Assembly (NCBI GenBank): GCA_023419995.1
Contig: JAEZXF010000260.1
Location: forward strand, 1-10,823
Direction: 5' to 3'
DNA length: 10,823 nucleotides
DNA from: Pseudomonadota bacterium
GTDB taxonomy: Bacteria > Pseudomonadota > Alphaproteobacteria > Rhizobiales > Rhizobiaceae
Shown: piece after piece, positions 74 through 10,402 of the stretch
How the letters are laid out: the number at the start of each line of letters is the position of its first letter
Position numbering within the stretch: the stretch's first letter is position 1
Notes under the pieces: generated by a model
The model's database searches: none
The model's input: only the letters and a program-made list of their open reading frames with translations
What the model was told of the DNA's origin: nothing
Position numbers and translations under genes: made by a program

Positions 74-82
74 TCTGGAAAG

Positions 83-166
83 GGAGAGTTGGGCCGGGAT
101 CGGGGCGAGCCTGGCGGAAGGAGAGGAGAGCGCCGCCGGGCCATATCATCCCGCTCTCCTGGAGGA
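83..166 (+). promoter_or_regulatory. Leader A: predicted H-type pseudoknot before the 174 gene
   Basis: A purine tract GGAGAG (83-88) and a GGGCCGG box (91-97) precede a two-stem fold. Stem 1 pairs 109-117 (GCCTGGCGG) with 133-141 (CCGCCGGGC), 9 bp with one G-U. The loop of stem 1 carries GGAGAGCG (125-132), which pairs perfectly with CGCTCTCC (152-159), making stem 2 of an H-type pseudoknot. The loops are 7, 0 and 10 nt, which is sterically good and allows coaxial stacking. Stem 2 ends one base before the ribosome binding site GGAGG (161-165). The same layout precedes 4087 and 4668. Folding is my reading by eye and was not computed. Confidence 0.6.
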
Positions 167-173
167 TCATCCA

Positions 174-662
174 ATGACCGATACCGACAAACCAGCCACG
201 CCGGAATTCGACATGGCCGCCAGCGTCGCGCGCTTCTTCGCCGAGCGCGATGAGCGCAACCGTCGCGCTGAAGCGGTCCGTCCCGACAACAAGACGGCGC
301 TGTTCGATGCGCTGGCCGCCGCAGGCATCACTCTCGTGACCGTCACCTTCGACGGTTCTGGCGACAGCGGCCAGATCGAGGACATCACCGCGCAATCGGA
401 CGACCGGACCGTGGACCTGCCGCAGGGCGAGATCACCATTGCCACGGTGGCATGGGGAACCGACAAGGTGACCGCAATCTCAATGGGCGTTGAGGCGGCC
501 ATCGAACAGCTCGCCTATGACTTCCTCTCGGAAACCCATGGCGGCTGGGAGAACAATGATGGCGCCTATGGCGAGTTCAGCTTCGATGTGGCGGCGCGCA
601 CCATCACGCTCGACTACAACGAGCGCTACACCGCCACCGAATTCTACAGTCACGAGTTCTGA
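174..662 (+). CDS. DUF6878-family protein (function unknown)
   Basis: A 162-aa soluble, acidic protein without signal peptide or membrane segment. I recognise it as DUF6878-like mainly from its C-terminal half, where GGWENNDGAYGEF leads into ITLDYNERYT, the signature I associate with this family. The N-terminal 40 residues are charged and probably helical (RFFAERDERNRRAEA). No catalytic motif is evident and no function is known to me. The ATG at 174 is chosen because GGAGG (161-165) sits 8 nt upstream. The frame is open further upstream, but an upstream start would run through the structured leader. The next gene starts 10 nt after the stop, so the two are probably co-transcribed. Family members occur on alphaproteobacterial plasmids and ICEs near the same neighbours. 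Confidence 0.8.
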   Translation: MTDTDKPATPEFDMAASVARFFAERDERNRRAEAVRPDNKTALFDALAAAGITLVTVTFDGSGDSGQIEDITAQSDDRTVDLPQGEITIATVAWGTDKVTAISMGVEAAIEQLAYDFLSETHGGWENNDGAYGEFSFDVAARTITLDYNERYTATEFYSHEF

Positions 663-672
663 GGGGGCGGAA

Positions 673-1053
673 ATGGCACATCCCTATCATCATGCGCTCT
701 CGTCGGTGAAGAAATGGGGCGGCACGGTCGAGGATTACTTGCCCATCCATAGCTGGTTCGATGCCAGCAAGGAGATCCTGGCCGATTTTCGTGATCGCGC
801 GCTTCGCCACCATGCCGAGGGCATCTTCATGGCCGAGACCATTTTCGGGGCGACGATCACCCTGTCCACCGGCAGGGTGATCCCGGCCCGATGGGTCGGG
901 GAGCAGCATGTCCGCGAGGATCTGGGCCGTATCCCGTCCTTCGCCGATTGGGCGCGGGCAATCCACCCGGCGCCTTGGATGGGGCGGACGCAGCGGATCG
1001 AGGCGGAGGTCGATCCGCATTGCGTCAATGGCCGACTTCAGGAAGAAGTCTGA
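673..1053 (+). CDS. DUF6915-family protein (function unknown)
   Basis: A 126-aa cytosolic protein beginning MAHPYHHALSSVKKWGG. The histidine-rich start, the stretch HSWFDASKEILADFRDRALRHHAEGI and the later RWVGEQHVREDLGRIPS are features I associate with DUF6915. The conserved histidines (HH at about 44-45, and QHVRED) could bind metal, but that is inference. No function is known to me. The start at 673 follows GAGGGGG (661-667) and lies 10 nt after the previous stop, so the gene is probably the second member of an operon with 174-662. The frame is open further upstream, but that part overlaps the previous gene and has no ribosome binding site. Confidence 0.8.
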   Translation: MAHPYHHALSSVKKWGGTVEDYLPIHSWFDASKEILADFRDRALRHHAEGIFMAETIFGATITLSTGRVIPARWVGEQHVREDLGRIPSFADWARAIHPAPWMGRTQRIEAEVDPHCVNGRLQEEV

Positions 1054-1092
1054 GCAGTCGCGTCAGCCTCCCCCTTATGAAAGCCTCTTGCC

Positions 1093-1461
1093 ATGCTCAG
1101 CCATATCGTCATCTCCGTCCTGCTCTGCACGGCTTCCTGCGAACCGGCGGAAATCCGCGTCTGGGACGGTGACTCGATCCGGCTGGGTATGGGACAGCAG
1201 TCCGAAGCTGTTCGGATATTCAACATCGACGCTCCCGAAATGGAGGGCCGCTGCATCCATGAAACCGACCTTGCCCGGCAAGCGAAGATCAGGCTGGCGG
1301 AAATCCTGCAAGGTCGGCGGGTCGAAATCCTGCGTCAGGGGACCGACCGCTATGGCCGGACCCTGGCGGCGATACGCGTCGAAGGCCGCGATGTCGGCGA
1401 TATTCTCGGCGATGAAGGGCGGGCGAGAACCTGGGCCGGGCGGCGTGAGCCCTGGTGCTGA
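1093..1461 (+). CDS. Small thermonuclease (staphylococcal nuclease-like, SNase fold)
   Basis: A 122-aa SNase-domain protein. Mapped onto staphylococcal nuclease, the key residues are all present: Asp27 in WDGDS (metal site), Arg41 in VRIFNIDAPE (catalytic Arg35), Asp46 (Asp40), Glu49 (general base Glu43) and Arg89 in TDRYGR (Arg87). An active Ca-dependent phosphodiesterase is therefore expected. Residues 5-15 are a short hydrophobic stretch (IVISVLLCTAS) that may be a signal peptide, although it lacks a basic n-region, so export is uncertain. An in-frame stop at 1078-1080 makes this ATG the first available. The ribosome binding site is poor, so translation may be coupled to the gene ending at 1053, 39 nt upstream. 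Such small nucleases are common cargo on alphaproteobacterial plasmids, where their role is unsettled. Confidence 0.88.
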   Translation: MLSHIVISVLLCTASCEPAEIRVWDGDSIRLGMGQQSEAVRIFNIDAPEMEGRCIHETDLARQAKIRLAEILQGRRVEILRQGTDRYGRTLAAIRVEGRDVGDILGDEGRARTWAGRREPWC

Positions 1462-1466
1462 TCGCC

Positions 1467-1496
1467 GGATCGTCCCGCCGAGGTGCGGGACGATCC
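1467..1496 (+). terminator. Perfect 12-bp inverted repeat after the nuclease gene
   Basis: GGATCGTCCCGC (1467-1478) and GCGGGACGATCC (1485-1496) are exact reverse complements around a 6-nt loop, CGAGGT. The stem starts 5 nt after the nuclease stop codon, as expected for a transcription end or an mRNA-stabilising 3' stem. There is no T-run after it, so a pure intrinsic terminator is doubtful. A protein-binding palindrome is the alternative. Confidence 0.5.
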
Positions 1497-1507
1497 ACCG
1501 TCGGGAC

Positions 1508-1584
1508 GGGAGAGTAAGAGTGCGGGCCGGTTGGCCGTGACGGATTGTGAGGCGGGAGAGGGGCTTCCGCCGTCCGTCGCGGAG
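1508..1584 (+). promoter_or_regulatory. Leader B: divergent version of the GGGCCGG/GAGAG leader
   Basis: GGGAGAG (1508-1514) and GGGCCGG (1524-1530) occur in the same order as in the leaders at 83, 3996 and 4572. A 10-bp stem with one G-U pairs 1535-1544 (CCGTGACGGA) with 1573-1582 (TCCGTCGCGG). Its 28-nt loop holds GGGAGAGGGG (1554-1563). The second helix is weak here: GGGAG (1554-1558) with TTCCC (1587-1591), or GGGG (1560-1563) with CCCC (1589-1592), both touching the start codon. Part of the ribosome binding site GGAG (1581-1584) lies in the 3' arm of the first stem, so folding would hide it. Confidence 0.4.
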
Positions 1585-1592
1585 CATTCCCC

Positions 1593-2150
1593 ATGAGCCT
1601 TTCCCACCACACCACTTTCGCCTCGATCGGCGAAATTGTCGCGCGACAGATCCTGCCCCGGCTGCGTCATGCCCAGAAGCTGCCGCTGCGCATCTCCTGC
1701 ATCGGTATCGCCAGCGATGACGAAAGCGATGACGTCGGCGGCTTCGACCGCACGCTCGTCATCGGCCAGTGCCAATCCCCCGAAGAGGCGCTGATCATCG
1801 CCAGCCAGCGCGTTGCGCGCGGTGATTTCCGCGTTGGACAGGGCGATGCGCTGCGCTTTCGCCCCCGCGTCATGGTCATTCAGGACAACGAACTGGGCCT
1901 TGTCCTTGCCGGTGAGGTCCGGGCCGGGATCGTGCTCTGGCAGCATCCGGTCGCCTCCGACGCCGAGGCTCGCCGCACCGTCACGGAGGCCAGCCGTCTG
2001 CGGGGCATGGCCTTCACGGCATCCGGGCGCGGCGATGCGGTATCGGCTCGTGATCTCCGCCACCGCGCCAGCCTGCTCGAGGCGCGGCTGGTCGATCCCT
2101 TCTGGCGCGAGACGACTGCCGATCTGCTGCGGCTGCCACAAGCTGCCTGA
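1593..2150 (+). CDS. Uncharacterised 185-aa protein
   Basis: I do not recognise this protein. It is soluble and has no signal peptide. Residues 1-35 look helical (EIVARQILPRLRHAQKLPL). A beta-rich part follows (LRISCIGI, RTLVIGQ, RVMVIQDNELGLVLAGEV) interrupted by an acidic segment, DDESDD. The C-terminal third is charged and helical (DAEARRTVTEASRLRG ... ARDLRHRASLLEARLV). No catalytic motif is visible. The start at 1593 is supported by GGAG (1581-1584), 8 nt upstream. Codon use matches the neighbours. It is a single-gene unit between the inverted repeat at 1467-1496 and the terminator at 2175-2204, with its own structured leader, so it may be expressed independently. Confidence 0.75.
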   Translation: MSLSHHTTFASIGEIVARQILPRLRHAQKLPLRISCIGIASDDESDDVGGFDRTLVIGQCQSPEEALIIASQRVARGDFRVGQGDALRFRPRVMVIQDNELGLVLAGEVRAGIVLWQHPVASDAEARRTVTEASRLRGMAFTASGRGDAVSARDLRHRASLLEARLVDPFWRETTADLLRLPQAA

Positions 2151-2174
2151 CCTGTCGCCCCTTTCCATCCACTA

Positions 2175-2204
2175 GGCCCGGCCCCGCGCCGGGCCTTCTC
2201 GTTT
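2175..2204 (+). terminator. Intrinsic terminator after the 1593-2150 gene
   Basis: GGCCCGGC (2175-2182) and GCCGGGCC (2188-2195) form a perfect 8-bp GC stem with a 5-nt loop, followed by the T-rich TTCTCGTTT. It lies 25 nt after the stop and ends 1 nt before the AGGAG of the next gene, so read-through transcripts would carry the hairpin in their leader. Confidence 0.7.
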
Positions 2205-2216
2205 CAGGAGCCTGAC

Positions 2217-2633
2217 ATGGCCGACTACTTCACCCATTTCTCCTGCCTGCTCGACGTGGGCAGCCCCGAGAACGCCGCCCGCGCGCTTGATCTCTACAAC
2301 GCGCTGGCGCGCGAAAACGCCGCCGAAGATCCGCCCTCGGACGGCTTCATGCTTTCGATCCAGCCCGAACATGGCGGCACCCAGCTCTGGATGCGCGATG
2401 ACGGCACCGGCGATCCCGAGCATGTCATCCAGTTCGTCAAACGCTGTGCCGCCGCGTTCGGCCTGACCGGGCTATGGGGGATGCAATACGCCAATACCTG
2501 CTCACGTCCGAGAATCGACGGGTTCGGGGGCGGCGCGCATGTCCTCGACCTCGCCACCGGCGAGACGGTGGACTGGATCTACACCGACGGTTGGCTTTCC
2601 ACCGTTCTGGACGGGGGCGACCCCAATGCCTGA
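2217..2633 (+). CDS. Uncharacterised 138-aa protein
   Basis: I cannot assign this acidic, soluble 138-aa protein to a named family. It begins MADYFTHFSCLLDVG and has an N-terminal helix (PENAARALDLYNALARENAA), a central beta/aromatic part (GFMLSIQPEHGGTQLWMRDDG), a second helix (EHVIQFVKRCAAAFGL) and a glycine-rich end with WIYTDGWLSTVL. The compact alpha/beta pattern and lack of catalytic motifs suggest a binding or accessory protein, but that is inference. AGGAG (2206-2210) lies 6 nt before the ATG. The stop overlaps the start of the next gene by 8 nt, so the pair is probably translationally coupled. Confidence 0.75.
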   Translation: MADYFTHFSCLLDVGSPENAARALDLYNALARENAAEDPPSDGFMLSIQPEHGGTQLWMRDDGTGDPEHVIQFVKRCAAAFGLTGLWGMQYANTCSRPRIDGFGGGAHVLDLATGETVDWIYTDGWLSTVLDGGDPNA

Positions 2634-3270
2634 CGTCATCGAAACCACGGTCTATCGGCTCGACGAGCTTTCCGAAGCCGCGAAAGACAATGCCCGCGCC
2701 TGGTATCGCGAGGGCGGCTTCGACTACGATTGGTACGATGCCGTCTATGAGGATTTCCGGCGGATCGCGGACATCCTCGGCATCCGCATCAAGAGCCGCA
2801 CCGTCCGCCTCATGGGCGGCGGCGTGCGACAAGAGCCTTGCATCTGGTTTACGGGCTTCTGGTCGCAGGGCGATGGCGCCGCGTTCGAAGGCCACTATTC
2901 CTATCGCAAAGGCACGGCGGCGGAAATCCGTACCTATGCGCCGAAGGATGTGGAGCTGCACCGCATCGCGGATGCCCTGCACCAGGCGCAACGCCGCAAC
3001 TTCTACCAGTTGACCGCCGAGGCGACCCATCGGGGGCGATACTATCACGAATACTGCATGGCGATCTCGGTCACCCGCGACAGCCCGACCTGGCAGGACA
3101 TGACCGCCGATGCCGAGGAGACCGTCATGGAGGCATTGCGCGATCTCGCCCGTTGGCTTTATCGCCAGCTTGAGCGCGAATACGACTACCTGACTTCGGA
3201 TGAGGCGGTCGATGAGGCCATCCTTGCCAACGAATACAGCTTCACAGTTGATGGAAAGCGCTTCGGCTGA
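2626..3270 (+). CDS. Phage/plasmid protein of the family labelled 'antitoxin of toxin-antitoxin stability system'
   Basis: A 214-aa protein starting IETTVYRLDELSEAAKDNARAW after the first four residues. This opening, the later FSGFWSQGDG-like block (here TGFWSQGDGAAFEG) and the C-terminal RQLEREYDYLTSDEAVDE are shared with proteins found in many phages and plasmids. Databases often call them 'antitoxin of toxin-antitoxin stability system' or hypothetical, and I know of no experimental basis for the antitoxin label. No toxin-like partner is obvious in the overlapping upstream gene, although that 138-aa protein is the only candidate. The ATG at 2626 overlaps the previous gene by 8 nt. The stop is 17 nt from the stop of the convergent vapC-type gene. 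Confidence 0.78.
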   Translation: MPDVIETTVYRLDELSEAAKDNARAWYREGGFDYDWYDAVYEDFRRIADILGIRIKSRTVRLMGGGVRQEPCIWFTGFWSQGDGAAFEGHYSYRKGTAAEIRTYAPKDVELHRIADALHQAQRRNFYQLTAEATHRGRYYHEYCMAISVTRDSPTWQDMTADAEETVMEALRDLARWLYRQLEREYDYLTSDEAVDEAILANEYSFTVDGKRFG

Positions 3271-3287
3271 AACCCTTCTGCGCTGCC

Positions 3288-3671
3288 TCACAGAACCGAC
3301 AGCAGGTCCGTCCGTGAGAAGTCGTCGCCGACGAAGAGCAACGGGCAGCCGCGTTCGCTGGCGACCTCATAGGCGAAGCAATCCCCGTAGTTGAGTCCGG
3401 CGGGATGAACGCCCTTGCCCCAGCGGGCATAGGCTTCGGCGATCCTGCGTGCCGAGGCTTCAGTGACGGAGACCACCTCGAACCCAAGGCCCTCGACCAG
3501 GGCGGCGATCTCTTCACCGACATTGCGCCGCCCGGCGACGATCAGCGCCTCGGCCACTGTTCCGGCCGAGATCAGCAGGCCGTCTGCCGCCTCGATCGCC
3601 ACCATGCAGGTCTCGGCCTGCGGCTCGTCCAGCACGATGGCCATCAGCGCCGAGGTATCGACGGCGATCAT
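3288..3671 (-). CDS. vapC: VapC-type PIN-domain ribonuclease toxin
   Basis: A 127-aa single PIN-domain protein of normal VapC length. The four acidic residues of the Mg-dependent active site are present: Asp5 (AVDTSAL), Glu41 (TVAEAL), Asp97 (NYGDCFAYE) and Asp116/Asp117 (VGDDF). An intact endoribonuclease toxin is therefore expected. VapC toxins typically cut tRNA or rRNA, but the target cannot be read from this sequence. The start codon overlaps the stop of the upstream antitoxin gene by 4 nt (3668-3671), the usual coupled order of antitoxin then toxin. It runs against the flanking plus-strand genes, consistent with an independently acquired module that stabilises the element. Confidence 0.93.
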   Translation of the reverse strand: MIAVDTSALMAIVLDEPQAETCMVAIEAADGLLISAGTVAEALIVAGRRNVGEEIAALVEGLGFEVVSVTEASARRIAEAYARWGKGVHPAGLNYGDCFAYEVASERGCPLLFVGDDFSRTDLLSVL

Positions 3672-3925
3672 GCCGGCATCCCGTCATCCCCGTAGAGGAA
3701 ATCCTGGCTGCGCGCGGCAGCCGCGCCGGGCAATGCCTTGCCCCGCGCCGTGGCCCGGACCCGCTCCATCAGCGCGCGCCGGCCTTTCGGGGTCGCCACC
3801 ACGGCAACCGGCACGAGGCGGGCGACCTCGTGGCCCCGCCGCGTCAGGATCACCTCGTCGCCGGCTTCGGCCCGCTTCACCAGTTCGGTGAGCTGCCCCT
3901 TCGCCTCGGTGACAGAAACCCTCAT
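3668..3925 (-). CDS. vapB: Phd/YefM-type (VapB) antitoxin
   Basis: An 85-aa antitoxin. The N-terminal part, MRVSVTEAKGQLTELVKRAE followed by GDEVILTRRGHEVARLVPV, is the classical Phd/YefM DNA-binding and dimerisation fold. The C-terminal half (about 45-85) is basic, then loosely structured (ARSQDFLYGDDGMPA), as expected for the toxin-wrapping tail. It should neutralise the VapC encoded directly downstream and repress its own operon together with the toxin. On the minus strand GGAG lies 9 nt before the ATG. The intergenic region upstream, shared with the divergent antirestriction gene, contains a direct repeat that is a plausible operator. Confidence 0.9.
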   Translation of the reverse strand: MRVSVTEAKGQLTELVKRAEAGDEVILTRRGHEVARLVPVAVVATPKGRRALMERVRATARGKALPGAAAARSQDFLYGDDGMPA

Positions 3926-3964
3926 CGCATATCACTCCAGATGTTCTCCGCTATTCTGCACAAG

Positions 3965-3984
3965 ATGGTCCAGATAATGGTCCA
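3965..3984. promoter_or_regulatory. Candidate VapBC operator: direct repeat ATGGTCCA
   Basis: ATGGTCCA occurs at 3965-3972 and 3977-3984, 12 nt apart start to start, slightly more than one helical turn. Each copy contains the odd palindrome TGGTCCA. A GATAAT at 3973-3978, between and partly over the copies, could be a -10 element for rightward transcription, but I see no matching -35. The position, 40-60 nt upstream of vapB and 102 nt upstream of the antirestriction gene, suits an autoregulatory site. Confidence 0.45.
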
Positions 3985-3995
3985 CTTCAAGCCCC

Positions 3996-4080
3996 CAGAG
4001 CGAAAGGAGGGCCGGGAACAGGTGCCCCCGGACGGGTTGAGAGAGGGTCGTCCGGCAGGTGCCCCTTTCCCTCTCGGAGA
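3996..4080 (+). promoter_or_regulatory. Leader C: predicted H-type pseudoknot before the ardB-like gene
   Basis: A purine tract (CGAAAGGA, 4001-4008) and GGGCCGG (4009-4015) are followed by stem 1, CCGGACG (4028-4034) with CGTCCGG (4049-4055), 7 bp. Its loop contains GAGAGGG (4041-4047), which pairs perfectly with CCCTCTC (4069-4075) as stem 2. The loops are 6, 1 and 13 nt. The ribosome binding site GGAG (4076-4079) starts right after stem 2. The stem sequences differ from leaders A and D, yet pairing is kept. A 10-nt direct repeat CAGGTGCCCC (4019-4028 and 4056-4065) brackets stem 1. Confidence 0.6.
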
Positions 4081-4086
4081 CCGATC

Positions 4087-4509
4087 ATGGCTTTGCCCGA
4101 ACTTGCTTCCCAATCCGCAATCCGCGTCCCCGACGAGCGCCGCATGGACTTCCTGCCGCGCCTTTTTGGCCGGCGCCTGCTCATCATCGGCGAGCATACC
4201 GTCTTTCGCTTCATGGAGATACTCAGCCCCGGCGATTACGGCGGCGGGCTCTGGGATTTCTACGAACGCGCCGGCCAGCCGCTCTATCTCGCGCCGACCT
4301 CAAAGCCCCGTTGCCGCCTGTTCTGCGAAGGCAACGGCTTCGAGGGCGAGGTCTCAAGCGATGCCGCCGGGATCATCGCCACGCTCTTCGCCTTCTCGCA
4401 TCTTTCCTTCCGCTACGATGACGACGAACTCGCCGAGGGCTATGGTCGCCTCTACGAGCATGCCGCCGATCACGCGGAGGCGGCGGCGATTTTCCAGGCC
4501 ATCGACTGA
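4087..4509 (+). CDS. ardB: ArdB/KlcA-family antirestriction protein
   Basis: A 140-aa protein of the expected ArdB/KlcA length. Family features seen here are the opening VPDERRMDFLPRLFG, then EHTVFRFMEIL and GDYGGGLWDFYE, the stretch GQPLYLAPTS, the GNGFEGEVSSDAAGIIATLFAFSHL block, and the tail YEHAADHAEAAAIFQAID. ArdB proteins inhibit type I restriction enzymes in vivo and help incoming plasmids or ICEs survive on entry. Unlike ArdA they are not simple DNA mimics. GGAG (4076-4079) supports the start. The gene is flanked by its own pseudoknot leader and terminator, so it looks like a single-gene unit. Its leader matches that of the methyltransferase-helicase gene downstream, a second antirestriction candidate. 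Confidence 0.9.
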   Translation: MALPELASQSAIRVPDERRMDFLPRLFGRRLLIIGEHTVFRFMEILSPGDYGGGLWDFYERAGQPLYLAPTSKPRCRLFCEGNGFEGEVSSDAAGIIATLFAFSHLSFRYDDDELAEGYGRLYEHAADHAEAAAIFQAID

Positions 4510-4515
4510 AACCCA

Positions 4516-4548
4516 CAGGCGCCCAGCCTGACGGTCGGGCGCTTGTTT
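4516..4548 (+). terminator. Terminator hairpin after the ardB-like gene
   Basis: CAGGCGCCC (4516-4524) pairs with GGGCGCTTG (4537-4545), 9 bp with one G-U, around a 12-nt loop and followed by TTTC. It starts 6 nt after the stop codon. The T-run is short, so efficiency is uncertain. Confidence 0.6.
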
Positions 4549-4571
4549 CATGCCTGCTTTCGCCACGGCTT

Positions 4572-4660
4572 CAGAGCGAGAGATGGGCCGGAAGGGGTTT
4601 GAGCCGGTGCGGTCGAGAGAGAGCGCTGCCCGGCTTGATCCTGACTTGCTCTCCCGAGGA
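4572..4660 (+). promoter_or_regulatory. Leader D: predicted H-type pseudoknot before the methyltransferase-helicase gene
   Basis: CAGAGCGAGAGA (4572-4583) and GGGCCGG (4585-4591) closely match leader C at 3996-4015. Stem 1 is AGCCGG (4602-4607) with CCGGCT (4630-4635), extendable to 9 bp with two G-U pairs. Its loop carries GAGAGC (4619-4624), which pairs with GCTCTC (4648-4653). The ribosome binding site GAGGA (4656-4660) follows 2 nt later, and the ATG is at 4668. Confidence 0.6.
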
Positions 4661-4667
4661 ATCCCCG

Positions 4668-7600
4668 ATGAACATGATTTCCGCATCCGCGGCGGCATCC
4701 GCCACCGCGCCGCTTCCGTTCGACCATGACGCTGAGACCGCGGCCTGCGTTTTCACCGCTGCCGGTCTGCTGCTGCCGCATCTGGAACGCGGTCAGCGTG
4801 TCGACGCCGCCACGCTGCGCGGCGCCATGGAGGCCGCCTTCGGCACGTCCGATGCCACCGGCGCTTGGGACTGGAAGGCCGCCTATGATGCCTGCGAGGC
4901 GGCGACCGTCCTCTTCCTGCGCAAATACGGCAATGCACTTTTCCGCAAAGCCGGGTCTCCGTCGGCAATCCTGCCGCAGCTTACGAAAATTGCCGGGCTC
5001 CTGCCGACCCACACCCGGCGTTCCGAGGAAGCGCAGACCTTCCAGCAGTTCTCCACCCCGATCCCTCTCGGCTTCGCTGCGGTGACGGCGGCGGCGATCA
5101 CGCACGCCGACCGCGTGCTGGAGCCCTCGGCCGGCACCGGGCTCCTCGCCATCCTGGCCGAGATCGCCGGCGGTGCGCTGCTCGTCAACGAACTGGCCGA
5201 GGTCCGCGCCGGCCTGCTTTCCTCCCTCTTTCCGGCCCTGTCCGTCACCCGCTTCGACGCCGCCCAGATCGACGATCATCTCGATCCCGGCCTGATCCCG
5301 ACAGTGGTGCTGATGAACCCGCCGTTCTCGGTCATGGCCCATGTCGAGGGCCGCGTGGCTGATGCCGCCTTCCGCCATGTCGCCTCGACGCTGGCGCGCC
5401 TTGCGCCCGGCGGGCGGCTCGTCACCATCACCGGCGCGAGCTTCGCCCCCGACAATCCGGCCTGGACGGCTAACTGGAAACGGCTGCAGGAGCGCGGCCG
5501 CGTGGTCTTCTCGGCCGTCATCGATGGATCGGTCTATGCCAAGCACGGCACCACCATCGACACGCGGCTGACCGTCATCGACAAGCTGCCCGCCGAAGAC
5601 CCGGCGGTGTTCCCGGCAGCGCCCGGTGTGGCGTCGGATGTTGCCACCCTGATGGGCTGGCTGGCGGAGCAGCTTCCGGCCAGGCTTCCCGTCGATCCCG
5701 GCCTGGCCGTGCCGGTGGCACGACCGACCGCGCCGCGCACCGTGCGCGGCTATGTCAACCGCGCCGCGCGATCCGCGCCCGACGCGCCCCTTGCGGAACC
5801 GGAGGCCGTGCCGGTCGCCTACGAGATCGTGGATTGGGAACCGGCCGAGGGCGGCCGCCTCTCCGACGCGATCTACGAGGAATACGGTCTTCAGACCATC
5901 CGCATCGCCGGGGCGCAGGCGCATCCGACCCAGCTCGTGCAGTCGGCCTCGATGGCGAGCATCGCGCCGCCGAAGCCGAGCTATCGTCCGGTGCTGCCCA
6001 AAGACATTCTCGGCAGGCTGTCCGAGGCGCAGTTGGAGACGGTGATCTATGCCGGCGAGGCCCATATGGGATTCCTCGCCGGGGCTTGGACGGTGGACGA
6101 CACGCTCGACAATCTTGCTGCCACGCCGGAGGACGCCAAGGGCGCCGTCCGCTTCCGCCAAGGGTTCATGGTCGGCGATGGCACCGGCGTCGGCAAGGGC
6201 CGGGAATCCGCAGCGATCATCCTCGACAACTGGATGCAGGGGCGGCGCAAGGCGGTCTGGATCTCGAAGTCCGACAAGCTGCTGGAGGATGCGCAGCGCG
6301 ACTGGTCGGCGCTTGGCATGGAGCGGCTGCTGGTCACGCCGCTGTCGCGATTCCCGCAAGGCGCAAAGATCACCCTGAACGAAGGCATCCTATTTCTAAC
6401 CTATGCCACGCTGCGCTCCGACGACCGCGGAGAAAGGATTTCCAGGGTCAGGCAGATCGTCGAATGGTTGGGTTCCGACTTCGATGGAGTGGTGATTTTC
6501 GACGAGGCGCACGCAATGGCCAATGCCGCAGGAGGCAAGGGAGAACGCGGCGATGTCGCCGCCAGCCAGCAGGGCCGTGCCGGGCTGCGCCTCCAGCACG
6601 CCCTGCCGCAGGCCCGCGTGGTCTATGTCTCGGCCACCGGCGCCACCACCGTCCACAATCTCGCCTATGCGCAGCGGCTCGGTCTCTGGGGCGGCGAGGA
6701 TTTCCCATTCTCGACCAGGGCGGAGTTCGTCGAGGCGATCGAGGCCGGCGGCGTCGCGGCGATGGAGGTGCTGGCGCGCGACCTGCGGGCGCTTGGCCTC
6801 TACACCGCCCGCTCGCTGTCCTTCAAAGGCGTGGAATACGAGTTGCTCGACCACGAACTGACCCCTGAACAGGTCCGCATCTACGACAGCTATGCCGATG
6901 CCTTCGCCATCATCCATAACAATCTCGATGCGGCGATGCAGGCCGCCAACATCACCGGCGGCGAGGGCGGGTCCGGCACGCTGAACCGGCAGGCCAAGTC
7001 CGCCGCCCGCTCGGCCTTTGAGAGCGCCAAGCAGAGGTTCTTCGGGCACCTGTTGACGTCGATGAAAACCCCGACGCTGATCCGGTCCATCACGGCCGAT
7101 CTGGAAGCGGGACATTCTTCCGTCATCCAGATCGTCTCGACCGGCGAGGCGCTGATGGAACGGCGGCTGGCAGAGATCCCCACCGAGGAATGGGGCGATC
7201 TGAAAATGGACCTGTCGCCGCGCGAGTATGTCCTAGACTACCTCGCTCATTCCTTCCCGGTGCAGCTTTATGAGCCGTTCACGGATTCGGAGGGCAACCT
7301 GTCGTCGCGCCCGGTCTATCGTGATGGCCAGCTGGTCGAGAGCCGCGAGGCCGCGGCCCGGCGCGACGAGATGATCGCCAACCTCGCCAGCTTGCCGCCG
7401 GTTCCCGGCGCGCTCGACCAGATCATCCAGCATTTCGGCACCGACACGGTGGCGGAGGTCACGGGCCGCTCGCGTCGTATCGTCCGCAAGCGCGGCGGCG
7501 GCGTTACCATCGACCGGCTCGTCGTGGAAAGTCGCGCCGGTTCGGCCAACCTGGCCGAGACGCAAGCCTTCATGGACGATCAGAAGCGGGTGCTGGTGTT

Positions 7601-9023
7601 CTCCGATGCCGGCGGCACCGGGCGCAGCTATCACGCCGAACTGTCAGCGAAGAACACCCGGCTGCGCGTCCATTACCTGCTCGAAGCCGGCTGGAAGGCG
7701 GACGCCGCCATCCAGGGCCTTGGCCGGACGCATCGCACCAATCAGGCGCAGCCGCCGCTGTTCCGGCCGATCTCGACCAATGTGAAAGCCGAGAAGCGCT
7801 TCCTCAGCACGATTGCCCGGCGCCTCGACACTTTGGGCGCGATCACGCGCGGCCAGCGCCAGACCGGCGGCCAGGGCCTGTTCCGGCCCGAGGACAATCT
7901 GGAAAGTCCCTACGCCCGCGACGCGCTGCGCCAGCTCTATCTCCTGCTGGTGCGCGGCAAGGTCGAGGGATGTTCGCTCGAACGCTTCGAATCCGCCACC
8001 GGGTTGAAACTGATGGACGCGAACGGCATCAAGGACGAGCTGCCCGCCATCACGACTTTCTTGAACCGGCTGCTGGCGCTGACCGTCGAGCTTCAGGGCG
8101 TTCTCTTCAGCGCTTTCGAGCAGCTTCTGACCGCGCGGATCGAGGGCGCCATCGCGTCCGGCATCTATGACGCTGGGCTGGAGACGCTGCGCGCCGAGAG
8201 CTTCACCGTCACCGACCGTCAGGTGATCTACACCCATCCCCGCACCGGGGCCGAGACCAGCCTGCTGACGATCACCGAACGCAAGCGCAACCGGCCCGTC
8301 ATGCTCGATGCCGCCCTAGCGGAACTCGACGATCCGCGCGCGAAGCTCCTGATCAACGGGCGCTCAGGCCGCGCGGCGGTGCAAATCCCCACCACCAGCG
8401 TCATGCTGGACGATGGCGAGATCGAGCGCCGCGTCAGGCTGATCCGGCCGATGGAAGCACACAATATCCCCATCAGGATGATGGGCGAGACCCATTGGGT
8501 CGAGGCCGACCGGGACGCATTCGCTGCGGCCTGGAATGCGGAACTTGCGGAGGTGTCGGAGTTCGCAGACAGCACCCTGCATATGGTGACGGGCTTGCTG
8601 CTGCCGATCTGGAAACGGCTGCCGAACGAGTCCACCCGCGTCTATCGCCTCCAGTCTGACGCGGGCGAGCGCATCATCGGCCGCAAGGTCTCCCCGGCCT
8701 GGGCCGCGAACGCGACCACGACCGGCATCGCGAAGGTCACGCCGAAGGATGCTTTCGCGGCGCTGATGGAAGGCCGGACGATCCTCGATCTCTCCGAGGG
8801 CCTCCAGCTTCGCCGGGTCCGCGTCATGGGGGTGAACCGCATCGAGCTTTCCGGCTTCACCGACACCATGCGCCAGCGTCTCACGGCATACGGCCTCTTC
8901 CACGAGATCATCTCCTGGAAGCTGCGCATGTTCGTGCCAGTCGATGCCAGCGGACCCGCCGTGCTGGCCAAGCTCTTCGACCGCTGGCCGGTCGAGCGCA
9001 TCGGTGAACGGGAGGCAGCCTGA
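4668..9023 (+). CDS. Methyltransferase plus strawberry-notch-like SF2 helicase fusion (DarB-like architecture)
   Basis: A 1451-aa fusion. Residues about 125-330 are a class I SAM-dependent N6-adenine-type methyltransferase: FSTP (128-131), SAM loop EPSAGTG (152-158), catalytic NPPF (217-220). From about 445 comes the strawberry-notch-type SF2 ATPase: GDGTGVGKG (503-511, Lys510), DEAH (612-615), FSDAGGTGRSYHAE (978-991) and motif VI QGLGRTHR (1016-1023). Residues about 1150-1451 form an unassigned C-terminal region. Both enzyme halves look intact. Phage P1 DarB has a comparable methyltransferase-helicase make-up and protects P1 DNA against type I restriction, and the ardB-like neighbour fits that role, but function here is inference. 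GAGGA (4656-4660) fixes the start at 4668. The stop overlaps the next start (TGATG), implying coupling. The leader resembles that of the ardB-like gene. Confidence 0.9.
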   Translation: MNMISASAAASATAPLPFDHDAETAACVFTAAGLLLPHLERGQRVDAATLRGAMEAAFGTSDATGAWDWKAAYDACEAATVLFLRKYGNALFRKAGSPSAILPQLTKIAGLLPTHTRRSEEAQTFQQFSTPIPLGFAAVTAAAITHADRVLEPSAGTGLLAILAEIAGGALLVNELAEVRAGLLSSLFPALSVTRFDAAQIDDHLDPGLIPTVVLMNPPFSVMAHVEGRVADAAFRHVASTLARLAPGGRLVTITGASFAPDNPAWTANWKRLQERGRVVFSAVIDGSVYAKHGTTIDTRLTVIDKLPAEDPAVFPAAPGVASDVATLMGWLAEQLPARLPVDPGLAVPVARPTAPRTVRGYVNRAARSAPDAPLAEPEAVPVAYEIVDWEPAEGGRLSDAIYEEYGLQTIRIAGAQAHPTQLVQSASMASIAPPKPSYRPVLPKDILGRLSEAQLETVIYAGEAHMGFLAGAWTVDDTLDNLAATPEDAKGAVRFRQGFMVGDGTGVGKGRESAAIILDNWMQGRRKAVWISKSDKLLEDAQRDWSALGMERLLVTPLSRFPQGAKITLNEGILFLTYATLRSDDRGERISRVRQIVEWLGSDFDGVVIFDEAHAMANAAGGKGERGDVAASQQGRAGLRLQHALPQARVVYVSATGATTVHNLAYAQRLGLWGGEDFPFSTRAEFVEAIEAGGVAAMEVLARDLRALGLYTARSLSFKGVEYELLDHELTPEQVRIYDSYADAFAIIHNNLDAAMQAANITGGEGGSGTLNRQAKSAARSAFESAKQRFFGHLLTSMKTPTLIRSITADLEAGHSSVIQIVSTGEALMERRLAEIPTEEWGDLKMDLSPREYVLDYLAHSFPVQLYEPFTDSEGNLSSRPVYRDGQLVESREAAARRDEMIANLASLPPVPGALDQIIQHFGTDTVAEVTGRSRRIVRKRGGGVTIDRLVVESRAGSANLAETQAFMDDQKRVLVFSDAGGTGRSYHAELSAKNTRLRVHYLLEAGWKADAAIQGLGRTHRTNQAQPPLFRPISTNVKAEKRFLSTIARRLDTLGAITRGQRQTGGQGLFRPEDNLESPYARDALRQLYLLLVRGKVEGCSLERFESATGLKLMDANGIKDELPAITTFLNRLLALTVELQGVLFSAFEQLLTARIEGAIASGIYDAGLETLRAESFTVTDRQVIYTHPRTGAETSLLTITERKRNRPVMLDAALAELDDPRAKLLINGRSGRAAVQIPTTSVMLDDGEIERRVRLIRPMEAHNIPIRMMGETHWVEADRDAFAAAWNAELAEVSEFADSTLHMVTGLLLPIWKRLPNESTRVYRLQSDAGERIIGRKVSPAWAANATTTGIAKVTPKDAFAALMEGRTILDLSEGLQLRRVRVMGVNRIELSGFTDTMRQRLTAYGLFHEIISWKLRMFVPVDASGPAVLAKLFDRWPVERIGEREAA

Positions 9024-10066: not shown

Positions 10067-10213
10067 GGTCGTGATCGGTCCCGGAGGCGCGGCCCAGCGT
10101 CATCCTCTGCCGGTTTCAGTCTTTCGCCATCGGCAGGTGCATCCATCGTCGGAGAGTCCCGCGCCCACGGCCTTCGGAGAGGGCGATCGGCGCACAAACG
10201 GGCCGGGCAGGCA

Positions 10214-10298
10214 ATGGCCGGGTTTGGACTATTTTCCGCCGGCGGGGACGAACCCCGCCTTTGCATCGCGAAAGTCAAAATAGCCCACCCCCGGCCAT
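10214..10298 (+). ncRNA. Candidate structured RNA element in the 338-nt non-coding region
   Basis: The region 10067-10404 has no supported gene. Its core is a long nested fold. ATGGCCGGG (10214-10222) pairs with CCCGGCCAT (10290-10298). After a 2x2 internal loop TGG (10225-10227) pairs with CCA (10285-10287). After a 1x1 mismatch CTATTTT (10229-10235) pairs with AAAATAG (10277-10283). Inside is a hairpin GGCGGGG (10241-10247) with CCCCGCC (10253-10259), loop ACGAA, and possibly a small stem at 10260-10273. A GGGCCGGG box precedes it (10200-10207), and a separate CTGCCG/CGGCAG hairpin lies at 10107-10136. It could be a cis-regulatory leader, a terminator-like element or a DNA cruciform. I do not recognise it as a named family. 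Confidence 0.5.
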
Positions 10299-10302
10299 CA
10301 AG

Positions 10303-10402
10303 GCCCTCGCGGAGCGGGCGAGGGCTGCCAACCCGTCCCGCCCGTGCGCTTCGACGCCTGCGAAGGCCGCGATGGGCGCGGTCTCCAGACGAAGGACGCT
10401 CC
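10303..10402 (+). promoter_or_regulatory. Leader E: hairpin with possible long-range pseudoknot before the DUF2493-type gene
   Basis: GCCCTCGC (10303-10310) and GCGAGGGC (10318-10325) form a perfect 8-bp stem. Its loop GGAGCGG contains GGAGCG (10311-10316), the exact complement of CGCTCC (10397-10402), which lies between the ribosome binding site AAGGA (10392-10396) and the ATG. This resembles leaders A, C and D. However, the connecting loop is 71 nt and there is no free nucleotide between the two 5' strands, so part of stem 1 would have to open. Confidence 0.4.

What the first reader, a model, noticed from the sequence alone, without database searches (positions are those of the whole stretch)
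83..4660. Same pseudoknot leader in front of several unrelated cargo genes
Leaders at 83-166, 3996-4080 and 4572-4660 share one order: purine tract, GGGCCGG, 7-12 nt, stem 1, a GAGAG strand in the stem 1 loop, stem 1 closing strand, a spacer, then a CTCTC strand ending 0-2 nt before the ribosome binding site. Pairing is exact in each, yet the strands differ: GGAGAGCG/CGCTCTCC, GAGAGGG/CCCTCTC, GAGAGC/GCTCTC. Stem 1 differs fully too (GCCTGGCGG/CCGCCGGGC, CCGGACG/CGTCCGG, AGCCGG/CCGGCT). That is compensatory variation. A regulatory RNA family controlling DUF6878, ArdB-like and methyltransferase-helicase genes together is the simplest reading. Small H-type pseudoknots next to ribosome binding sites are known in riboswitches such as SAM-II and preQ1, but these genes share no pathway, so a protein, sRNA or ribosome-based signal is as likely as a metabolite.
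Basis: partly seen in the sequence, partly recalled or inferred. Interest (0 to 1): 0.82.

Follow-up and report, generated by a model that had tools for sequence, protein, structure and literature searches.

The report
Structured RNA leaders on DNA-invasion genes
A family of short folded RNA leaders sits just before the ribosome-binding site of many genes that help mobile DNA settle in a new alphaproteobacterial host, and probably controls their translation together.

Summary
The three leaders are real, homologous and more than chance. All belong to one RNA family, not found in Rfam 15, with two forms. Type I (DUF6878, ArdB, MTase-helicase) has a covarying stem 1; its GAGAG/CUCUC pseudoknot strands are nearly invariant, so the pseudoknot pairs well but has only modest covariation support. 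Type II (1510-1592; elsewhere before ParB-like, ArdC, RadC and other genes) is a nested hairpin with strong covariation (122 doubly changed cells against 33 in shuffles). In both forms the last strand ends mostly 13-15 nt before the start codon, and G-U pairs on the mRNA strand far exceed A-C mismatches, so it acts as RNA. All 80 helicase loci read carry type I; all 17 sampled genomes with credible type I hits also carry type II. The genes share a theme: establishment and anti-defence on conjugative elements. Most likely mechanism (inferred): joint translational control through a factor that reads the purine tract and loop. Main rivals: transcriptional antitermination or readthrough control, and a constitutive ribosome-binding aid. 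A second, larger covarying structure lies at 10148-10400.

The parts
78..168 (+). Leader A (type I) before DUF6878: purine tract and GGGCCGG at the 5' end; stem 1 109-117 with 133-141; stem 2 125-132 with 152-159; GGAGG 161-165; ATG 174
   Evidence: R1 hit, 58 bits, E 2e-12; pseudoknot 0/200 in shuffles; PF21798 downstream; strand positions read
1510..1592 (+).
   Evidence: R2 hit, 92 bits, E 2e-20 (this leader is one of the 33 that the model was built from); covariation of the form
3996..4085 (+). Leader B (type I) before ArdB: stem 1 4028-4034 with 4049-4055; stem 2 4041-4047 with 4069-4075; GGAG 4076-4079; ATG 4087
   Evidence: R1 hit, 51 bits, E 2e-10; pseudoknot 2/200; PF03230 downstream
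4572..4663 (+). Leader C (type I) before the helicase: stem 1 4602-4607 with 4630-4635; stem 2 4619-4624 with 4648-4653; GAGG 4656-4659; ATG 4668
   Evidence: R1 hit, 95 bits, E 6e-22; same place in 80 of 80 helicase loci; pseudoknot 1/200
174..662 (+). DUF6878 gene
   Evidence: PF21798, E 7e-58
1593..2150 (+). 185-aa gene without Pfam or NCBIfam match, preceded by leader D
   Evidence: relatives behind 27 of 129 type II leaders
4087..4509 (+). ArdB-like antirestriction gene
   Evidence: PF03230, E 3e-38
4668..9023 (+). Strawberry-notch-type helicase; relatives are annotated as methyltransferase/helicase
   Evidence: PF13872, PF13871; PLSDB names

Best explanation
The leaders are one family of 80-95-nt structured mRNA leaders placed before the first gene of several operons in the establishment (entry) region of alphaproteobacterial conjugative elements. 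SHOWN: a conserved 5' purine tract (AGAG-NN-AGAG), a covarying hairpin with a purine-rich loop, and a last helix strand that ends mostly 13-15 nt before the start codon, against the ribosome-binding site; the structure is in the sense-strand RNA. Two forms: type II closes with its own outer stem; in type I a CUCUC strand beside the ribosome-binding site can pair with the GAGAG loop (pseudoknot), possibly in competition with a longer outer hairpin. INFERRED: the leaders set translation of these genes together, because one factor recognises the purine tract and loop and stabilises or opens the helix beside the ribosome-binding site; likeliest a protein that a fresh recipient lacks, giving a burst on entry that is later damped. 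Confidence by step: RNA family 0.95; acts on translation initiation 0.6; common trans-acting factor 0.4; entry-burst logic 0.3.
For: Type II covariation: A3 27 doubly changed cells against 10.0+-2.4 in shuffles, 1-5 when slid; A5 122 against 33+-6, slid 10-28. Type I stem 1: swap test -17.1 against -13.5 kcal/mol, 0/2000; 10 doubly changed cells against 4.7+-1.7. Homology of the forms: all 63 weak R2 hits lie on type I leaders (one search read). Placement: 88 of 106 type I and 87 of 117 type II end 13-15 nt before the start. G-U against A-C: 96:25, 69:9, 172:19. Orientation: 194 of 202 R1 hits. Gene set: with Pfam checks on examples. No U-run closes the hairpins in the leaders listed, so they do not look like intrinsic terminators.
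Against: No expression data; no factor identified; direction of control unknown. Terminator-like hairpins end 5-37 nt before 28 of 91 type I leaders, which leaves little room for a promoter and fits a transcription-level role. Single-sequence folds leave the ribosome-binding site of the window leaders 32-53% unpaired on average, no clear open or closed state. In one search slid structures reach up to 13 doubly changed cells, more than the real 10, although only 34-51% of their cells pair (real 89.5%).
Confidence: 0.55

Rival explanations
1. Transcription-level element: the nascent leader acts on RNA polymerase, either as antiterminator (put/canT-like) or as a block to readthrough (as reported for pLS20 EGeRS1), so that operons separated by terminators are read in a controlled way.
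For: Terminator-like hairpins end 5-37 nt before 28 of 91 type I leaders (reverse-strand control 5 of 91); ICE and plasmid precedents (PMC11658703, PMC8708921).
Against: Type II shows almost no such terminators (8 of 116, control 5). Fixed distance to the start codon in both forms is not needed for an antiterminator. The upstream sequences counted include close relatives.
Confidence: 0.2
2. Constitutive translation aid: the purine tract and purine loop are ribosome standby sites and the helix only keeps the ribosome-binding site clear; no regulation.
For: Purine-rich unpaired elements in both forms (alignments); constant placement. The pairing idea with the 16S tail is recalled, not tested.
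Against: Helices are kept by covariation and P1 by sequence too, more than a spacer needs; presence only on some genes of the element.
Confidence: 0.13
3. Single-stranded DNA promoter (Frpo-like) used on entry.
For: Gene set matches leading-region genes for which such promoters are described (PMC11541004, passages).
Against: G-U excess on the mRNA strand is not expected of a hairpin in the template strand; placement against the ribosome-binding site. The promoter scan found no + strand site in the window, but shuffles give 1.0 on average, so that is uninformative.
Confidence: 0.05
4. Metabolite riboswitch (SAM-II or preQ1-like).
For: Small, and a pseudoknot beside the ribosome-binding site is possible in type I.
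Against: No Rfam match in the sequences scanned; type II lacks the pseudoknot; no common metabolite among the genes.
Confidence: 0.04
5. DNA operator of a transcription factor with inverted half-sites.
For: Inverted GAGAG/CTCTC pairs.
Against: G-U excess on one strand and wholesale replacement of stem sequences with pairing kept.
Confidence: 0.03

Closest known systems
EGeRS1 regions of pLS20-family plasmids (PMC8708921: abstract, passages, sections 13 and 20 read)
   Same: Conserved, structured regions directly upstream of the ribosome-binding sites of several establishment operons including ardC; mechanism reported as unknown
   Different: 400-600 bp, Bacillus, EGeRS1-B blocks readthrough; ours 80-95 nt, Alphaproteobacteria, with covariation evidence for an RNA. 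Sequences were not compared
Frpo/ssi single-stranded promoters (PMC11541004, passages read)
   Same: Hairpin elements upstream of several leading-region anti-defence genes
   Different: Act as DNA with -35/-10 elements; ours show RNA-type G-U pairing and sit against the ribosome-binding site
canT of Tn916 and put-type antiterminators (PMC11658703, passages read; put recalled)
   Same: Cis-acting RNA of a mobile element
   Different: canT acts on terminators, 452 bp in one place; ours are repeated before many genes at a fixed distance from the start codon
SAM-II and preQ1 riboswitches (recalled)
   Same: Small H-type pseudoknot beside a ribosome-binding site, in type I only
   Different: No Rfam match; most type II members have no pseudoknot; no shared pathway

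Membership tests
Any Rfam 15 family | Match to the family's covariance model | tested here: not met
   Window to E 10; L026, L069, L063 to E 5; six loci at gathering score; L171 to E 1: no match on a leader. 11 loci and the window of those fetched
SAM-II / preQ1 riboswitch | H-type pseudoknot conserved in members | tested here: not met
   Possible in type I, absent in leader D and replaced by a nested hairpin in type II
SAM-II / preQ1 riboswitch | Ligand binding | not testable with these tools
   Needs probing
Frpo-type ssDNA promoter | -35/-10 elements formed in a DNA hairpin | tested here: inconclusive
   No + strand promoter-like site in the window, but 1.0 expected in shuffles
Frpo-type ssDNA promoter | Structure in the transferred template DNA strand | tested here: not met
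   G-U to A-C 96:25, 69:9, 172:19 on the mRNA strand; transferred strand itself not determined
[quoted passage not shown]
EGeRS1 | 400-600 bp with EGeRS1 sequence | tested here: not met
   Model lengths 92 and 83 positions; sequence similarity not tested
put/canT antiterminators | Raises readthrough of downstream terminators | not testable with these tools
   Needs reporters; terminator positions

The most novel reading that the evidence does not exclude
An RNA-level establishment regulon: one element-encoded factor reads the same purine-tract-plus-loop code on the entry genes and silences their translation in the donor; a fresh recipient lacks it, so the entry genes are translated in a burst and then damped. 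It would be the RNA counterpart of repressor-based zygotic induction, with a type I sub-form that switches between a long hairpin and a pseudoknot.
Probability: 0.28. Interest if true: 0.88.

Novelty: new variant of a known kind. Interest (0 to 1): 0.74.

Why it matters
How conjugative elements switch on anti-defence genes at entry is open for many of them (the EGeRS1 paper, PMC8708921, says so for its own). Here a compact covarying RNA marks entry genes across many Alphaproteobacteria. That makes the question testable with simple reporters, gives a handle to find further entry and anti-defence genes by their leader, and points to a shared regulator worth isolating.

Tried and rejected
Pairing of the 5' purine tract with the CUCUC strand: not supported (cognate no better than swapped: 506, 352, 439, 148 of 2000). 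A small hairpin P0 upstream of P1 in type II: 38/2000 with 82 leaders but 240/2000 and 960/2000 once close relatives are removed, not kept. Outer helix of type I: 8 to 65 of 2000 by swapping but not by columns (142/500), kept only as a possibility. A conserved mini-ORF in type II (GTG ACG GGT TGA): dropped, the stop is not conserved. A name I had used from memory for the ~400-aa gene (DUF932) was dropped: Pfam does not match it.

Rows dropped or chosen: 2 of 29 type II and 1 of 18 type I genome hits in the class survey do not look like leaders by inspection (L118, L119, L137), leaving 27 and 17 of 385. L035:3041 was left out of the type I swap test. 129 of 139 strong type II hits were taken on (near-identical neighbours left out), and 11 of these could not be parsed. 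In one search L139 was put in the DUF6878 group unchecked; no number cited rests on it. In one search one control ran the other way: purine tract with the P2 3' half pairs worse in cognate than in swapped leaders (2000/2000 with 82 leaders, not with 27 or 15); unexplained.

Papers: listings only; none of the titles and abstract starts shown describes such a leader family. The library holds only CC-licensed PMC papers, so this is weak evidence of absence.
Full report
WHAT IS IN THE WINDOW. The window matches a Paracoccus versutus megaplasmid (NZ_CP035287, 99.8%) and lies on contig C22 of the own genome. Genes: DUF6878, DUF6915, an SNase-like gene, three genes without Pfam match, a PIN/Phd-YefM pair on the other strand, ArdB-like (PF03230), a strawberry-notch-type helicase whose relatives are annotated as methyltransferase-helicases, and a toprim protein. 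Downstream in the same orientation lie YspA-like, SSB, RepA, ParA, a DNA methylase, an S26 peptidase, an SLT transglycosylase, a relaxase-type gene (DUF3363) and a T4SS coupling protein. Upstream lie a ParB-like gene, DUF2958, mercury genes, two ArdC genes and an integrase. This looks like a conjugative element.

THE OBSERVATION. The three leaders are as described. Pseudoknots scoring as high as the real ones occur in 0, 2 and 1 of 200 dinucleotide shuffles of leaders A, B and C. Rfam 15 has no match on them.

HOMOLOGUES. A search with the helicase gave 80 loci (the best 80 of 201, so biased to close relatives, several near-identical). A model from 27 mixed leaders (R1) read over the window and these loci gave a strong hit just upstream of the helicase in 80 of 80, and more before ArdB and DUF6878 genes. 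Of 202 hits to E 1, 194 have the helicase's orientation; the 8 others have E 0.43 or more. Many of the weak hits are a second form, type II. One is window 1510-1592.

TYPE II. A MAFFT alignment of 33 such leaders (A3) supports two nested helices: P1 (CGUGACGGG with CCCGUCGCG), which touches the GGAG, and P2 with a purine loop. 27 cells change on both sides with the pair kept, against 10.0+-2.4 in shuffles and 1-5 when partners are slid. These sequences had been found with a model holding only type I stem 1 pairs, so P1 was not selected for. Swapping strands between leaders weakens P1 (0/2000, 0/2000, 2/2000 with 82, 27, 15 leaders) and P2 (0/2000 in each).

TYPE I. Stem 1 is well supported: cognate strands -17.1, swapped -13.5 kcal/mol, 0/2000; in the MAFFT alignment A2 10 doubly changed cells against 4.7+-1.7, all in stem 1, with 89.5% of cells paired (slid versions pair 34-51% but reach up to 13 such cells). 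Stem 2 pairs in 94.8% of cells but is nearly invariant: 2 doubly changed cells, reached by 98/500 shuffles. The swap test favours it: 0/2000 with 69 leaders, 8 with 44, 31 with 23, 29 with 17 (its 3' region also includes the outer strand, and the test does not correct for relatedness). Single leaders show matched changes (GAGAGGG/CCCUCUC in B; GAGAGCA/UGCUCUC in L045), while L140, L142 and L143 lack the CUCUC strand by inspection. A longer outer hairpin that would compete with stem 2 appears in RNAalifold and in single folds; it passes the swap test (8 to 65 of 2000) but not the column test.

ONE FAMILY. Besides 139 strong hits the type II model gives 63 weak ones (E 0.015-0.89); all 63 lie on type I leaders (one search read). 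Both forms begin with AGAG-NN-AGAG and put their last strand mostly 13-15 nt before the start codon: 88 of 106 type I, 87 of 117 type II (part of the rest is my start-codon picking). G-U pairs on the mRNA strand exceed A-C mismatches 96:25 (type I stem 1), 69:9 (A3) and 172:19 (A5). The structure is therefore in the RNA.

REGULON AND SPREAD. Of 129 type II leaders, 50 precede a ParB-like gene, 33 ArdC, 27 the 185-aa gene, 9 a ~400-aa gene without Pfam match, 2 RadC, 2 a ~129-aa gene, 5 single short frames, 1 none. Groups were made by BLASTP; one example of each of the larger groups was checked with Pfam, and the ParB match is below the curated cut-offs. In a class sample type II occurs in 29 of 385 genomes (27 credible) and type I in 18 of 385 (17 credible); all 17 also have type II. 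In a phylum sample 34 of 398 have type II, all within the same class (the number of genomes outside the class is not given). One locus carries the label of a Thauera MAG (L054). One ArdC leader has relatives in 144 of 72,556 plasmid records and in none of 50,697 phage records; a strict pattern hits 2 IMG/VR contigs.

MECHANISM. Constant placement against the ribosome-binding site in both forms argues for translation initiation. The conserved purine tract and loop, kept while helices covary, argue for recognition by a common factor. Neither the factor nor the direction of control is known. Against this stand the terminator-like hairpins 5-37 nt before 28 of 91 type I leaders (reverse-strand control 5 of 91; type II 8 of 116, control 5), so antitermination or readthrough control remains the main rival. 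Precedents seen: EGeRS1 (PMC8708921), canT (PMC11658703), Frpo (PMC11541004).

VERDICT.

Noticed in passing
window 10148-10400: A second, larger conserved noncoding structure before the YspA-like gene: blastn matches in 73 of 80 loci; RNAalifold on 23 sequences gives 52 pairs, 45 doubly changed cells against 12.1+-2.6 in shuffles and at most 7 when slid; no Rfam match. By hand count G-U and A-C cells are about equal (15 each), unlike the leaders, so it may act as DNA (for instance a single-strand origin or promoter; an SSB gene lies downstream).
   Followed up: partly
28 type I leaders, e.g. window 4526-4548 before leader C: Terminator-like hairpins end 5-37 nt upstream of the leader, leaving little room for a promoter (28 of 91, reverse control 5 of 91).
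   Followed up: partly
upstream of ArdC leaders, e.g. L044 before 4628, L075 before 3695: A hairpin-rich block (GGGGAAGGCCTTCCCC ... GCAACGCCCC) recurs before many ArdC leaders; possibly an origin of transfer or a further regulatory site.
   Followed up: no
L089 5121-18339 (own genome, C22): Mercury-resistance genes lie between the ParB-like gene and an ArdC gene, and an integrase between two ArdC genes; the upstream ArdC (247 aa, with a leader) is shortened, the other (308 aa) has no leader hit.
   Followed up: no
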